DNA of 64,000 nucleotides, taken from positions 4,748,341 to 4,812,340 of the forward strand of contig NZ_CP074126.1 of NCBI RefSeq assembly GCF_018282095.1. Direction: 5' to 3'. Each line of letters starts with the position of its first letter. Positions within the stretch are counted from its first letter, which is position 1. The translations under genes and the position numbers were made by a program. The notes beneath the pieces are model-generated. The model ran no database searches, had not been told where the DNA came from, and saw only the letters and a program-made list of their open reading frames with translations. The DNA comes from Pseudovibrio brasiliensis. GTDB taxonomy: Bacteria > Pseudomonadota > Alphaproteobacteria > Rhizobiales > Stappiaceae. Shown here piece by piece: positions 4,414 to 61,502 of this stretch.

Positions 4414-4886
4414 ATGTGAAACCCGATAATCGGGACGAGCAAGGCGGCAGGCAATACCTGCGCATTGAGTTAGTAATAGAGTCTTCGGCATTGGCTACGC
4501 GCCTTGCCCGGGCATTTTGGTATGGCCAACATCGCCTCTTATCCTGAAAGACACGATAGCCGGTTTCCCGGAAGGATAGTGGCTTTGCTCAGATAAGTTT
4601 CCGTATCCGAACAGGTCCTCTACCCCTGACATGTGCTGCTCTGACCAGCAAATGCCACTGCGTGATGCCCTTCAGGCTTGGGCCCTTCCTCTCAGACCAT
4701 GCAGTCACGCCTGAAAATCGGTGCCACCGGACCCTTGCAAGATGCGTTACCCCTCACAAAAGCCCCACCCAGCCCACGACACACCGACGGACGGCCCGCC
4801 AGCAGCCCGTCACGTGGGCATAGAAGAAGCATAGGCGCTCCCGAACCAAGGGGGATAAGTTTTTTGAGACCAAGAGCCGCTACACT
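4414..4886. other. Geneless stretch between mutS and the dioxygenase gene
   Basis: Nearly 500 bases without a supportable gene. Two overlapping open frames on opposite strands (4678-4941 plus, 4692-4919 minus) are rich in Pro, Gly, Ser and Arg, have no recognisable domain and no convincing ribosome binding site, and look like readthrough of GC-rich non-coding DNA. Several short complementary segments suggest it could be transcribed as a structured RNA or be repeat debris. I could not match it to 6S RNA, tmRNA, RNase P RNA or SRP RNA. Confidence 0.4.
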
Positions 4887-5017
4887 CGGTGTCTTCCCGG
4901 CCCCCGAGCCGGGATCCATACCCCCTTGCCTTACTATTTAACGAAGACCTCAGCCAATCTCTGATACTGGGGTTATAGGTCCCGGGTCTACGCTTCGCTT
5001 CGCCCGGGAAGACACCG
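4887..5017. repeat. Paired-hairpin palindromic repeat element
   Basis: A perfect 14-bp inverted repeat, CGGTGTCTTCCCGG at 4887-4900 and its complement at 5004-5017, bounds a 131-bp unit. Each end also folds on itself: TCCCGG (4895-4900) with CCGGGA (4909-4914), and TCCCGGG (4980-4986) with CCCGGGA (5003-5009). This two-hairpin mirror layout resembles BIME/REP-type or small MITE-like intergenic repeats. No transposase is present. Family membership would need other copies in the genome. Confidence 0.6.
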
Positions 5018-10930: not shown

Positions 10931-11761
10931 TTATTTCCGAGCTTTTTCTACACCCACACGTAGTGAGCTCACAAGGTCGGTAACAGCAGCTTGTGTCTGA
11001 TTTGTGGCTTTACCATTCTCATCAAGGCTCTTGCGAATTGCCTCAACAAGGATGGAGCCAACCACCACACCATCAGCGTGTTTGCCAATTTCCTCAGCCT
11101 GTTCAGCAGTTTTAATGCCGAAGCCAACAGCAATAGGAAGGTCTGTGTGGGATTTAATTCGTGTAACCGCCTGTGCAACGGCGGTTGTGTCTGCAGCAGC
11201 AGATCCGGTAACACCAGTAACGGACACGTAGTAAACGAATCCGGAGGTGTTCGCCAGAACGGTTGGCAGGCGTTTGTCGTCAGTTGTTGGTGTGGTCAGG
11301 CGAATGAAGTTTACACCGCCCTCAATTGCCGGAATGCAGAGTTCGTCATCTGCTTCAGCAGGCACATCCACAACGATCAGACCATCAACACCAGCTTCGC
11401 GCGCTTCTTTCACAAACGCCGCGCTGCCGCGTACATAGATCGGGTTGTAATAACCCATCAGAACGATTGGGGTGTCATTGTCCTTTTTACGGAACTCACG
11501 CACCATCTGAAGGGTCTTGTCCATAGTGTGACCATGCGCCAAAGAGCGCTGTGTCGCCAGCTGGATCGGAACACCTTCAGCCATTGGGTCGGAAAACGGC
11601 ATGCCAAGCTCAATAACATCACTGCCTGCTTCCGGAAGAGCATCCAGAATAGCTTGTGAGGTGGCGAGGTCCGGGTCTCCAGCCGTAATAAAAGTTACGA
11701 GTGCAGGACGTCCTTCAGCCTTGAGCTTTGCGAAGCGTCGATCAATACGAGTTTCAATCAT
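10931..11761 (-). CDS. trpA: Tryptophan synthase subunit alpha
   Basis: Cleaves indole-3-glycerol phosphate to indole and glyceraldehyde 3-phosphate and passes indole to TrpB. The 276-residue TIM barrel has the catalytic Glu in [15 protein letters not shown] and catalytic Asp in LIVVDVP, and the phosphate loop [10 protein letters not shown]. There is no trpB directly upstream; instead the promoter region and first 13 codons are present twice (see repeats at 11721 and 13438). Heads the trpA-accD-folC run. A TTGACA-type promoter lies about 75 bp upstream. Confidence 0.96.
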
Positions 11762-11982
11762 TCATCCGACCATCTGATGTATTGGGGCAAGCCCCACCAA
11801 TCAATCAGCAAGGATGTAGGGGTGCAACTAGCCCCATGTCAATAAACACAGCGCAAATAGAATGCGTTTCTGGCGATTTTTATGAGAAATAGACAACAGC
11901 TCCAGAGAATATCCAGCGATATAGACTCGTGAAGGCGGTGATTAACCATTGCGTCAATCAAACTATTGCCTTTTCTGATCTT
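11721..11982. repeat. Direct repeat copy 1: trpA 5' end plus upstream region
   Basis: These 262 bp recur at 13438-13699, an exact offset of 1717 bp, with three mismatches by eye (all near the right end, 11939-11952). This copy covers trpA codons 1-13 (to 11761), the leader and the putative promoter. Beyond 11982 the copies diverge for 34-35 bases, then share a GAAAACAAAAAGCCGC-like tract (12017-12032 versus 13735-13750), so the duplicated unit was probably about 310 bp. Together with copy 2 it brackets the pyruvyltransferase-like gene. Confidence 0.97.
11783..11842 (-). promoter_or_regulatory. Putative trpA promoter and leader hairpin
   Basis: On the minus strand a perfect TTGACA (plus 11837-11842) lies 17 bases from CTACAT (plus 11814-11819), a weak -10; an 18-base spacing gives TACATC. 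Downstream, TGGGG/CCCCA (11783-11796) can form a small hairpin in the leader before the trpA start. The same elements exist in the second repeat copy, shifted by 1717 bp (13500-13559). Confidence 0.5.
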
Positions 11983-12119
11983 TCGCTCGGGCCAAGAGGC
12001 CCCACGAAGGGGATCTGAAAACAAAAAGCCGCTGGTCTATTAGTCTCTTATCCGGAGTAGAGCGTATATATTTACAACATGGCTACCACTAAGGGGTCAG
12101 ATATGTAACATTTTAAACC

Positions 12120-13121
12120 TTATTTAGGGGGATTGGGAAATATTCGATCTGCTGATTGATCAGACATCCAATCGAATAGCTTTTCATATTCGTGTCTATA
12201 ATTTTCTACTTGAGATAACAATAGTGAGAATTCTTTCGGAGATGTTGCTGTTGGGATATCGGCATTTGCACTCTCAATAAGACCTCTGATCTTATGAGAA
12301 TTCCCTTCGCTTGCAATAAAAGGCGTTCGAGCTTTACAAGCTGCGTAAACTGCATGATGCTGCCCGGTAATAATATATTCGTAACCAGACATCTTCTGAA
12401 TCATATCTTCCCAACGGGTCTCACGCATAGACAAGTAATCAGCGTGCGGAAATAAATCGTCATTGCGTACAAATATATCGGTTTCGGGACAACGAAAATC
12501 AGTATAAGCAACACCTGATCGATTCAGCTTGTCATTCTTTTCGACTGTAGGTCCCCAAAAAAAAGCAGCGTCAATGCAGACCGTTGCCTCAATGCCATGT
12601 TTTTCGCGAAGATCTCTCTCACTCAACTTCTCGCGTACTTGGACGCCGGAAAGTTGTCTAAGGACGGAATCGTACTCATTGCAATTATCCTGCCAGACCG
12701 AGTTCACTAGATATGCAGGAATACCAGCCTCTACGGCCTTCTGCAAAACACCCATCTTTTTGCGAAAATTCTCACTAGAGTGATGCATAGATCCCTCACC
12801 GTTCACAACGACAGCGTCATAGGGTTCCCTGAAAGTTGCCAATCTCCAGCCTTTAATTTTTGCAGTTTCTCGCAATGCCATCACTACTGCCGCACATCCA
12901 CAATGGAGGCTTGAATGATTTCCTAGTAAGCGTACGACAGGTGCCCCTTTCCTATCTTTACGTAATAAGACTCGTTCATATTCGAACCCAAACTCTTTTT
13001 CTTCCCTAAGCCCCGCCTTTATCCGCAGATGCTTCCAATAATTTTTAAACTCTTGAACCACGAGTACTTCCCTATCAAACGTGCGTTTCAATAAACCTTG
13101 GTCACGCCCCAAATGACTCAA
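12120..13121 (-). CDS. Polysaccharide pyruvyltransferase-family protein
   Basis: A 333-residue protein resembling the PF04230 family, whose members add pyruvate ketals to exopolysaccharide or cell-surface sugars; many relatives have other GT-B-like transferase roles. Supporting blocks are NHSSLHCGCAAVVMALRE near the N-terminal third, DAVVVNGEGSMHHSS, a central PAYLVNSVWQ, and a C-terminal ITGQHHAVYAACKARTPFIASEGNSHKI that matches the family's His-containing donor-site region. The DNA is visibly AT-richer than its neighbours (a sampled 60-base line has 43% GC against 55% in trpS) and the gene sits between two direct repeats, so it is probably acquired. No other polysaccharide gene is nearby. 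Acceptor and donor are unknown. Confidence 0.75.
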   Translation of the reverse strand: MSHLGRDQGLLKRTFDREVLVVQEFKNYWKHLRIKAGLREEKEFGFEYERVLLRKDRKGAPVVRLLGNHSSLHCGCAAVVMALRETAKIKGWRLATFREPYDAVVVNGEGSMHHSSENFRKKMGVLQKAVEAGIPAYLVNSVWQDNCNEYDSVLRQLSGVQVREKLSERDLREKHGIEATVCIDAAFFWGPTVEKNDKLNRSGVAYTDFRCPETDIFVRNDDLFPHADYLSMRETRWEDMIQKMSGYEYIITGQHHAVYAACKARTPFIASEGNSHKIRGLIESANADIPTATSPKEFSLLLSQVENYRHEYEKLFDWMSDQSADRIFPNPPK

Positions 13122-13437
13122 TTATTGTTCTGATCGCGAGCTAGTTCTTCGCTGCATCCATGCTTGTTATTCATCGGTCCACTTATGCAATGCAACGGGT
13201 GTTCAGGTACCGTGATCGGACCCTCAACCTTGAGAGAGCGAAGAAAAAGATGGCTGAATAGCCTCGATAAGCGCCGTATTTGGCATGCTCGAAACGTAGT
13301 TTCCTTTGTTGTCCATTCGGGCGTATGCAGTGAAAAACGGTCGTGCACCACACTGTATTAAGACCTGTTGCCTTAAAACCGGTCGGAAATTATCCGGAAA
13401 TTGTGGAGATTCTCATGATCGTGCCTGCCAATTTGAA
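13122..13437. other. Cassette segment between pyruvyltransferase-like gene and repeat copy 2
   Basis: About 315 bases with short open frames on both strands (13118-13351 minus, 13164-13361 plus, 13306-13494 plus). None shows a recognisable domain or a good ribosome binding site. It could be leader sequence of the pyruvyltransferase-like gene or debris of whatever brought the cassette in. Confidence 0.4.
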
Positions 13438-13478
13438 TTGAGCTTTGCGAAGCGTCGATCAATACGAGTTTCAATCAT
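13413..13478 (-). pseudogene. Truncated trpA 5' fragment fused to cassette sequence
   Basis: In repeat copy 2 the trpA start codon (13478) and 13 codons are intact, then the reading frame runs into cassette DNA and stops: [13 protein letters not shown] followed by NSNWQARS and TGA. It keeps the trpA leader and start site, so it may be translated as a 21-residue peptide ahead of the pyruvyltransferase-like gene, but has no enzyme function. Confidence 0.8.
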
Positions 13479-13699
13479 TCATCCGACCATCTGATGTATT
13501 GGGGCAAGCCCCACCAATCAATCAGCAAGGATGTAGGGGTGCAACTAGCCCCATGTCAATAAACACAGCGCAAATAGAATGCGTTTCTGGCGATTTTTAT
13601 GAGAAATAGACAACAGCTCCAGAGAATATCCAGCGATATAGACTCGTGAAGGCGGCGATTAACCAATACGTCAATCAAACTATTGCCTTTTCTGATCTT
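13438..13699. repeat. Direct repeat copy 2: trpA leader duplicate
   Basis: Second copy of the 262-bp repeat (see 11721-11982). Its right side continues into the trpS terminator and trpS, so this copy is joined to the original upstream flank, while copy 1 is joined to intact trpA. It carries the putative trpA promoter pointing into the cassette. Confidence 0.97.
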
Positions 13700-13734
13700 G
13701 TGAATGCGCCAATGGAAGCCGTCATAACACTCCA

Positions 13735-13768
13735 GAAAACAAAAAAGCCGCAGATGATCTGCGGCTTT
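13735..13768 (-). terminator. Second terminator downstream of trpS
   Basis: GCCGCAGAT and ATCTGCGGC form a palindromic stem at about 13747-13766. Read on the minus strand it is followed by TTTTTTGTTTT, so it stops minus-strand transcription coming from trpS. Half of this structure is repeated at 12017-12032 next to repeat copy 1. Confidence 0.75.
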
Positions 13769-13775
13769 CTGACAG

Positions 13776-13818
13776 CGTATCTCCGAAAAGTGGAATCCGG
13801 TTTTCGGATAAAGATACG
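13776..13818. repeat. Palindromic intergenic repeat, copy A
   Basis: Core CCGAAAAGTGG (13783-13793) and CCGGTTTTCGG (13797-13807) separated by AAT, with outer arms CGTATCT and AGATACG. The same core occurs at 46276-46300 and 61340-61366. Closely similar palindromes are a widespread intergenic repeat type in Hyphomicrobiales. Confidence 0.8.
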
Positions 13819-13832
13819 TGAGAGTAAAAAAT

Positions 13833-13860
13833 GAAAGCAGTTCAAATGTGAACTGCTTTC
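13833..13860 (-). terminator. Intrinsic terminator of trpS
   Basis: GAAAGCAGTTCA (13833-13844) pairs perfectly with TGAACTGCTTTC (13849-13860). On the minus strand it is followed by ATTTTTTA, 22 nt after the trpS stop. Confidence 0.85.
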
Positions 13861-13881
13861 AGTCTTGAAACTAAACGTAAA

Positions 13882-14964
13882 TTAGTTGCGGCGGCTTTCC
13901 AGGAAGCCAACAATGCGGCGTACATCATGCAGCACTGGCTCAGCGATTTCCGCAGCGCGTTCAGCACCATCACGAAGAACGGCATCAACGCTTGCAGGAT
14001 CGTTCATGATCCGGCGCATTTCATTGTTCATTGGCGCCAGCTTCTCAACCGCCAGCTCAGAAAGAGCAGGCTTGAACGCTGAGAACTGCTGACCGCCGAA
14101 CTCGCCCAGAACCTCTGCTTTGGACTTACCAGCAAGAGCTGCGTAAATGCCAACAAGGTTATCAGCTTCCGCACGACCTTCCAGACCATCCACTTCACTT
14201 GGAAGAGCCTCAGGGTCTGTCTTCGCTTTTCTGATCTTCTTCGCAATGGTGTCCTGATCATCGGTCAGGTTGATGCGGGAAAGATCAGAAGGATCAGACT
14301 TGGACATCTTCTTGTTGCCGTCACGCAGGCTCATGATACGGGTCGCAGGACCAGTGATCATCGGCTCGGTGATCGGGAAGTACAGCTCATCTGGTGCTTC
14401 GTGAGAAGGCTCAGGGTTTGGAACACCAAGACCCAGCTCTTTGATGCGATCAGCAAAGTCATTGTTGAACTTCTGCGCAATATCGCGTGTCAGCTCAAGG
14501 TGCTGCTTCTGGTCATCGCCAACCGGAACGTGTGTTGCGCGGTAGGCCAGAATGTCTGCTGCCATCAGGTTCGGATAAGCAAACAGACCAACGGAAGCGT
14601 TTTCCGCGTTCTTCCCTGCTTTGTCCTTGAACTGAGTCATACGCTTCAGCCAGCCCATACGAGCGATACAGTTGAAGATCCATGCCAGTTCAGCATGTTC
14701 TTTCACCTGACTCTGGTTGAAGATGATCGACTTCTTCGGATCAACACCGGCTGCGAGGTAAGCAGCTGTTACTTCGCGGGTCTGCTGCGTCAGCTCGGCA
14801 GGATCCTGCCAGACTGTGATCGCGTGCATGTCAACGATGGAGAAGATAGTCGGCATCTGGTCCTGAAGCGGAACAAAGCGGACAATCGCACCAAGGTAGT
14901 TACCGAGGTGGAGGTTTCCGGTTGGTTGAACACCGGAGAAAACGCGAGGCTGAAACGCCGTCAT
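13882..14964 (-). CDS. trpS: Tryptophanyl-tRNA synthetase
   Basis: Class I synthetase charging tRNA-Trp. The 360 residues include the HIGH-type signature [13 protein letters not shown] near residue 14, the [12 protein letters not shown] region, and the KMSKSDPSD loop that binds ATP. Length is typical of the alphaproteobacterial enzyme. It is the last gene of the tim44-mltA-smr-xre-glnD-murJ-trpS minus-strand run, 162 bp after murJ, and is followed by two terminators. Its position next to trpA may be coincidental, but both respond to tryptophan supply. Confidence 0.96.
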
Positions 14965-46275: not shown

Positions 46276-46300
46276 CCGAAAAGTGGCTTCCAGTTTTCGG
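46276..46300. repeat. Palindromic intergenic repeat, copy B
   Basis: CCGAAAAGTGG followed by a short loop and AGTTTTCGG, with GTTC/GAAC outer arms, just 10 bp after the rdgB stop. Second copy of the family seen at 13783 and 61340. Confidence 0.75.
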
Positions 46301-61202: not shown

Positions 61203-61502
61203 CTAACCAACAAACCGCAAAATGACTAATTACAACGGGGAGTTTTTGACAGAATCCTTAAAAAAATCGCGGATTTCCTTGGGTTGAGGCTGTATTAACT
61301 GCGGTGGATCTGTAGAAATAAACCAAATGACAGCCTCTCCCCGAAAAGTGGGAACCGGTTTTCGGGCAGGGATAGGCGCAAAACAATCGATTAGAGCTGA
61401 GTGCATGCGGGCATGCGGTGAACTCTAAATGTAAATTGCCGGATTTCATTCCTTGTTAAACGAGGGATTGATTTTACGGCCTTCGGAATAGATGGGGCAT
61501 CC
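61203..61502. other. Intergenic region between rsmI and the LpoA-like gene
   Basis: About 300 bases holding divergent promoters and the third copy of the palindromic repeat. No gene is supported. Confidence 0.5.
61340..61366. repeat. Palindromic intergenic repeat, copy C
   Basis: CCCGAAAAGTGGG and CCGGTTTTCGGG with a two-base gap, the third member of the family at 13783 and 46276. Confidence 0.8.

What the first reader, a model, noticed from the sequence alone, without database searches (positions are those of the whole stretch)
11721..13699. Pyruvyltransferase-like gene framed by 262-bp direct repeats of the trpA 5' region
Seen directly: 11721-11982 and 13438-13699 align base for base at an offset of 1717 with only three mismatches. 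The repeat contains the first 13 trpA codons, its leader and its probable promoter. Copy 1 joins intact trpA and copy 2 joins the trpS flank, so a block of about 1.7 kb was inserted, or the region was tandemly duplicated and one interior replaced. A circle carrying a trpA-leader segment and the pyruvyltransferase-like gene, recombined once into the chromosome, would leave this A-X-A layout. I know of no described element using a trpA leader this way.
Basis: partly seen in the sequence, partly recalled or inferred. Interest (0 to 1): 0.72.

Follow-up and report, generated by a model that had tools for sequence, protein, structure and literature searches.

The report
Duplicated trpA control region around insert
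A marine bacterium took up one sugar-modifying gene between two housekeeping genes where its relatives carry nothing or other genes, and the insertion doubled the stretch in front of the neighbouring tryptophan gene, so the newcomer may now be run from that copied stretch.

Summary
The repeat is real: 11721-11982 and 13438-13699 match with three mismatches. It is the only repeat of at least 45 bp found in the window, and the genome search found just these two copies. The genome is a Pseudovibrio. Its closest congener in the search, G006, has one copy running straight from trpA to trpS, an empty site. None of 15 congeners shows a second copy. So about 1.7 kb was inserted in this lineage.

The duplication is longer than 262 bp: copy 1 continues for about 53 bp as a different allele of the trpS-trpA spacer, most like G014, ending inside the trpS terminator stem. 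This favours arrival on DNA from a relative. And the spacer is a recurrent cargo site: across 16 genomes it is short in 8, holds a lipoprotein-like gene in 3, a two-gene DUF3302/HlyD-like pair in 4, and the pyruvyltransferase here.

Best explanation (inferred): one-sided homologous recombination plus one illegitimate junction, a described process. It left copy 2, with the presumed trpA promoter, upstream of the intact new gene. A circle is possible but not needed. Modest interest.

The parts
10931..11761 (-). trpA, intact, 276 aa
   Evidence: Pfam Trp_syntA E 6.1e-95; 99% identical to G006 trpA
11721..11982 (-). Repeat copy 1: first 41 coding bases of intact trpA plus 221 bp upstream of it
11983..12035 (.). 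Continuation of copy 1: diverged allele of the trpS-trpA spacer ending in half of the trpS terminator stem
   Evidence: local alignment best with G014, 0 of 500 shuffles; 11983-12045 minus strand folds no better than shuffles (z -0.34)
12120..13061 (-). Inserted polysaccharide pyruvyltransferase-like gene, 313 aa from a GTG start (open frame runs to 13121)
   Evidence: PF04230 E 2.2e-8; 71% to Pseudovibrio sp. SCP19; AF2 pLDDT 93.2, best PDB match Pvg1p; AGGGA before the GTG
13062..13437 (.). Unmatched sequence upstream of the inserted gene, ending at the abrupt junction just after trpA codon 13
   Evidence: 13100-13440 has no match in 15 congeners; 11983-13437 has no match in the plasmid collection
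13438..13699 (-). Repeat copy 2: second trpA upstream region plus truncated trpA start, upstream of the inserted gene and in the same direction
13413..13478 (-). Hybrid 21-aa open frame: 13 trpA codons running into inserted sequence
   Evidence: translation
13742..13770 (-). Intact trpS terminator-like hairpin, upstream of copy 2
   Evidence: 13-pair stem; fold of 13700-13780, z -3.6
13882..14964 (-). trpS, intact, 360 aa
   Evidence: Pfam tRNA-synt_1b; next to trpA on the same contig in 16 of 16 Pseudovibrio

Best explanation
The trpS-trpA spacer of Pseudovibrio is a recurrent insertion site for small cargo (shown by comparison). In this strain's lineage, DNA from another Pseudovibrio-like donor, carrying a trpA upstream region next to a pyruvyltransferase gene, recombined by homology in or beside the resident trpA upstream region, and its other end joined illegitimately just after trpA codon 13 (inferred). 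The product keeps a full trpA with a mosaic upstream region (copy 1, with the donor allele at its far end), the new gene, and the resident upstream region plus a 13-codon trpA stub (copy 2) still attached to trpS. Copy 2 then points its presumed promoter at the new gene, which has its own likely ribosome-binding site, so the gene may be transcribed from a second trpA control region (inferred from layout only).
For: G006 empty site with flanks 97.3 and 97.2% identical. 0 of 15 congeners show a second copy. Spacer states in 16 genomes: 8 short, 3 lipoprotein-like, 4 DUF3302/HlyD-like pair, 1 this one. 11983-12035 is a different allele of the spacer, while the sequence after copy 2 shares an 85-bp addition with G006. 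The three copy mismatches fall within 13 bp at the end next to that allele (simulated chance 0.006), as a crossover boundary would give. Gene foreign in composition: lower GC and larger tetranucleotide distance than any of 304 overlapping same-size window pieces. Nearest protein is from another Pseudovibrio, 71%. Copy 2 lies below the trpS terminator and faces the gene. Two GTA-type genes in the genome offer a possible carrier of linear DNA.
Against: The donor was not found: no close copy of the insert in 15 congeners, the plasmid collection, 29 loci of genome contigs (best 46%) or 3 viral loci. The 53-bp stretch varies fast in the genus, so its foreign origin rests on one short alignment; the resident flank itself scores above most shuffles too (28; 2 of 500 reach it). 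G000-G006 divergence shows no donor tract in the trpA flank. No transcript data, and the promoter scan found nothing above chance (5 against 4.0).
Confidence: 0.5

Rival explanations
1. Campbell-type integration: a circle carrying the trpA upstream segment and the gene recombined once with the chromosome.
For: Gives exactly A-X-A with hybrid copies; the differing allele at the far end of copy 1 fits too.
Against: Of the six ORFs of 60 aa or more in or overlapping the insert, all scanned against Pfam, only the pyruvyltransferase matched; no replication, mobilisation or integrase family. No plasmid match for 11983-13437. Requires a circle not seen.
Confidence: 0.25
2. Native tandem duplication of the trpA upstream region, later invaded or replaced inside by the gene.
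For: The 218 bp at the trpA end are identical in both copies and in G006.
Against: Copy 1's continuation is not the resident allele; needs two events; no congener shows the duplication.
Confidence: 0.15
3. A mobile element that uses trpA-leader repeats as ends and carries cargo.
For: Long direct repeats frame one gene.
Against: Only two copies in the genome; no two-copy form in 15 congeners; other cargo at this site has no repeat; no recombinase family in the insert's ORFs.
Confidence: 0.04
4. Assembly artefact.
For: No reads could be inspected.
Against: The copies differ at three places and copy 1 continues into a diverged allele, which a copied assembly error would not create; the locus lies inside a 4.8-Mb contig.
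Confidence: 0.03

Closest known systems
Minimal mobile elements (Saunders and Snyder 2002, as cited in PMC3082526)
   Same: Two conserved genes with different whole-gene cassettes between them in different genomes
   Different: Here compared between species, not strains; exchange by flanking homology not shown; this case adds a duplicated flank. Definition taken from passages of PMC3082526.
Small variable segments with flanking direct repeats (Genome Biol. 2010, PMC2884548)
   Same: Small gene segment at a variable locus flanked by direct repeats; homology-assisted illegitimate recombination proposed
   Different: 10-18% of segments there have repeats and 66-94% of those repeats are under 30 bp (sections 10 and 14 read); here at least 262 bp and including a gene's upstream region
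Homology-facilitated illegitimate recombination, as proposed for Vibrio cholerae immunity-gene arrays (PMC5361080)
   Same: One homologous anchor, one illegitimate end, old sequence kept beside the new
   Different: Here the kept sequence is an upstream region, not a gene (passages read)
Polysaccharide pyruvyltransferases (PF04230; Pvg1p 5ax7)
   Same: Pfam match and best PDB fold match
   Different: TM about 0.5, 13% identity to Pvg1p; Gln for Arg in the TGRHH motif

Membership tests
Minimal mobile element | Two conserved flanking genes | tested here: met
   trpA and trpS are neighbours in 16 of 16 Pseudovibrio genomes, gap 313-2120 bp
Minimal mobile element | Different whole-gene cassettes between them | tested here: met
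   short spacer in 8, lipoprotein-like 3, DUF3302/HlyD-like pair 4, pyruvyltransferase 1 of 16; between species, not strains
Minimal mobile element | Incorporated by homologous recombination in the flanks | tested here: inconclusive
   no donor tract seen in the G000-G006 flanks; donor-like allele at the far end of copy 1
Homology-facilitated illegitimate recombination product | One homologous and one non-homologous junction | tested here: inconclusive
   homologous side 11721-12035 and abrupt junction at 13437/13438 fit, but without the donor the junctions cannot be assigned with certainty
Homology-facilitated illegitimate recombination product | Donor molecule with one-sided homology known | tested here: not met
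   insert not found in 15 congeners or plasmids; so resemblance in mechanism only, membership not claimed
Integrase- or transposase-borne element | Recombinase gene or multiple copies | tested here: not met
   six ORFs scanned, no such family; two copies only
Polysaccharide pyruvyltransferase (PF04230) | Profile match above curated cut-off | tested here: met
   34.8 bits, cut-off 25.3
Polysaccharide pyruvyltransferase (PF04230) | Pyruvyl transfer activity | not testable with these tools
   needs an enzyme assay

The most novel reading that the evidence does not exclude
The trpS-trpA spacer of Pseudovibrio is a genus-wide cargo dock, and one-sided recombination there copies the trpA control region onto the incoming gene, so a foreign gene gets a ready promoter in the same step as it is integrated, while the resident gene stays intact.
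Probability: 0.3. Interest if true: 0.45.

Novelty: new member of a known kind. Interest (0 to 1): 0.3.

Why it matters
It is a clear snapshot of how a single gene without mobile machinery of its own can enter a chromosome next to housekeeping genes without breaking them, and perhaps gain a control region at once. It also gives a comparative site (16 species, four kinds of content) for testing homology-assisted gene gain in marine bacteria.

Tried and rejected
Insert on plasmids: 11983-13437 has no match (records very near the window's genome may be left out there). Closer relatives of the gene: the genome-contig scan gave 29 loci, best 46%, and the viral scan 3 loci, best 34%. In the genus the protein search found G008 at 45% and weak partial matches in G014 and G004. 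Gene remnant upstream of the insert: 13100-13440 has no match in 15 congeners; two short translations gave no Pfam match of weight (best E 0.19), and one of them only chance-level matches in congeners (E 0.27 and above) and none in plasmids. Three further ORFs gave no Pfam match. Leader as a known RNA: the three Rfam hits fall at 13736-13891, outside the leader, below gathering scores. The 119 leader bases next to trpA fold no better than shuffles. Strong promoter: scan not above shuffles. ATATCGCTGGATAT, conserved in the upstream regions aligned (9 congeners), occurs only in the two copies in the own genome, so it gave no regulon. PDB sequence search with a six-sequence profile found no relative; the fold search did. 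Donor tract in the flanks: none.

Full report
Observation. The two blocks at 11721-11982 and 13438-13699 are a real direct repeat with three mismatches. No other repeat of 45 bp or more was found in the window, and the search of the own genome returned just these two copies. They are not identical, and copy 1 continues into sequence that differs from that beside copy 2, which argues against an assembly copy. The locus is inside a 4.8-Mb contig of a 6.03-Mb genome in 6 contigs.

Organism. The congener G008 is Pseudovibrio exalbescens M63, by matching contig positions, so the genus is Pseudovibrio. The strain itself was not named by any search.

Comparison. In a search of 41 genomes (own included), 13 matched: the own genome, 11 of 15 congeners, each at one place only, and weakly one genome outside the genus; G001, G010, G011 and G013 did not match at this level. 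G006 is an empty site: trpA, one copy, trpS, with flanks 97.3 and 97.2% identical. The '100%' listed for G006 is rounded: copy 2 differs from G006 at one and copy 1 at two of 221 upstream positions. Within the trpA-trpS gap, a self-comparison finds a direct repeat in the own genome and in 0 of 15 congeners.

Spacer survey. trpA and trpS are neighbours on one contig in 16 of 16 Pseudovibrio genomes. Their gap is 313-405 bp in 7, 576 bp in G012, 1609-1610 bp in 3, 1819-1864 bp in 4 and 2120 bp here. The 1610-bp form carries a 361-aa lipoprotein-like ORF (my reading of its sequence; no Pfam family), found in those 3 of 16 genomes and only at this site. The longer form carries a small ORF of 116-142 aa and a 375-aa ORF in all four genomes; in G001, the one tested, these are DUF3302 (E 6e-33) and a weak HlyD_D23 match below its cut-off. 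In G002, G004 and G015 the cargo begins at almost the same spacer position (about 210-222) where the 262-bp identity ends here. trpB lies 16.4 kb away on the same strand in this genome, and trpS-trpA neighbourhood is shared by all 16, so it is not a result of this insertion.

Structure of the duplication. Copy 1 runs on for 53 bp as another allele of the spacer, down to AAAAAGCCGC in the trpS terminator stem, where the insert begins. It was aligned with nine spacers (the own copy 2 flank and G002, G003, G005, G006, G007, G009, G014, G015; G004 and the other five were not used). Scores were 24-38. G014 was best (38) and aligned over the whole stretch. For G003, G005, G006 and G014, 0 of 500 single-base shuffles reached the score; for the other five, 1-10 did. 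For the own flank and G006 only the last 16-21 bases aligned. The resident allele beside copy 2 shares with G006 an addition of about 85 bp, including the palindromic element at 13783-13807. The three mismatches between copies sit in 13 bp at the end next to the differing allele; in simulation a span that short arose in 0.6% of draws. The region is also generally more variable there, so this is support, not proof. The other junction, 13437/13438, is abrupt, within trpA codon 14.

The gene. 12120-13061 (minus) codes for a 313-aa PF04230 protein with a GTG start after an AGGGA-like site. Its nearest relative is 71% identical, in Pseudovibrio sp. SCP19; all others among the best 120 of 183 listed are below 50%. 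The P. exalbescens homologue (46%) sits among glycosyltransferase-like genes with a second pyruvyltransferase-like gene (most roles read by eye from the ORFs). The predicted structure is confident (pLDDT 93.2, pTM 0.90). Its two best PDB matches are chains of yeast pyruvyltransferase Pvg1p, followed by other GT-B-like enzymes such as SenB and UDP-GlcNAc 2-epimerases ('GT-B' is recalled). In the TGRHH motif, Arg is Gln in 2 of 55 aligned proteins (55 of the 120 listed, chosen by me), this one and SCP19; that this Arg matters in Pvg1p is recalled. GC is 43%, below all 304 overlapping window pieces of that size.

Mechanism. One homologous junction plus one illegitimate junction explains the layout. 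This process is described in what I read: PMC2884548 (sections 10 and 14 and passages) and PMC5361080 (passages); repeat-based duplications made by transformation are described in PMC3784515 (passages). A gene transfer agent is reported for Pseudovibrio FO-BEG1 (PMC3806328, passages), two for P. ascidiaceicola 5337 (PMC12424307, abstract in the search listing), and this genome has two GTA_TIM matches: a possible but untested carrier. A circle gives the same product and cannot be excluded.

Consequence. Copy 2 lies below the trpS terminator-like hairpin and reads towards the gene, with a 21-aa hybrid frame in between. No terminator-like site was found between the gene and trpA. The gene could therefore be made from the duplicated trpA upstream region and might read on into trpA. 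This is inference from layout; that the upstream region holds the trpA promoter is presumed from position and conservation, and the promoter scan gave no support.

Novelty. It fits the ideas of minimal mobile elements and of variable segments with flanking repeats; the long repeat with an upstream region is a tidy but not a new kind of outcome. My literature searches did not ask for trpA-leader duplications as such, so I make no claim about what is in print.

Noticed in passing
window 13783-13807, 46276-46300, 61341-61365: A palindromic element (CCGAAAAGTGGnnnCCGGTTTTCGG) occurs three times with up to 2 mismatches; none in 100 shuffles. It resembles elements widespread in related orders (recalled).
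   Followed up: partly
whole genome G000: Two GTA_TIM (gene transfer agent) matches in open frames of about 1300 aa, at C1:1654275 and C1:3111183, suggesting two GTA-like clusters.
   Followed up: no
16 Pseudovibrio genomes: Each of 16 has two trpB-family genes over the curated cut-off, one scoring about 640-652 bits and one about 514-538 bits.
   Followed up: no
window 12120-13061: The inserted protein and its SCP19 relative have Gln where the other 53 of 55 aligned proteins have Arg in the TGRHH motif.
   Followed up: partly
window 4500-5000: About 23% divergence from G006, against 2-10% in the other 500-bp bins compared; most of it lies between ORFs of 130 aa or more.
   Followed up: no
window 11909-11922 and 13626-13639: ATATCGCTGGATAT (minus strand), conserved in the aligned trpA upstream regions, occurs only in the two repeat copies in the own genome.
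   Followed up: partly
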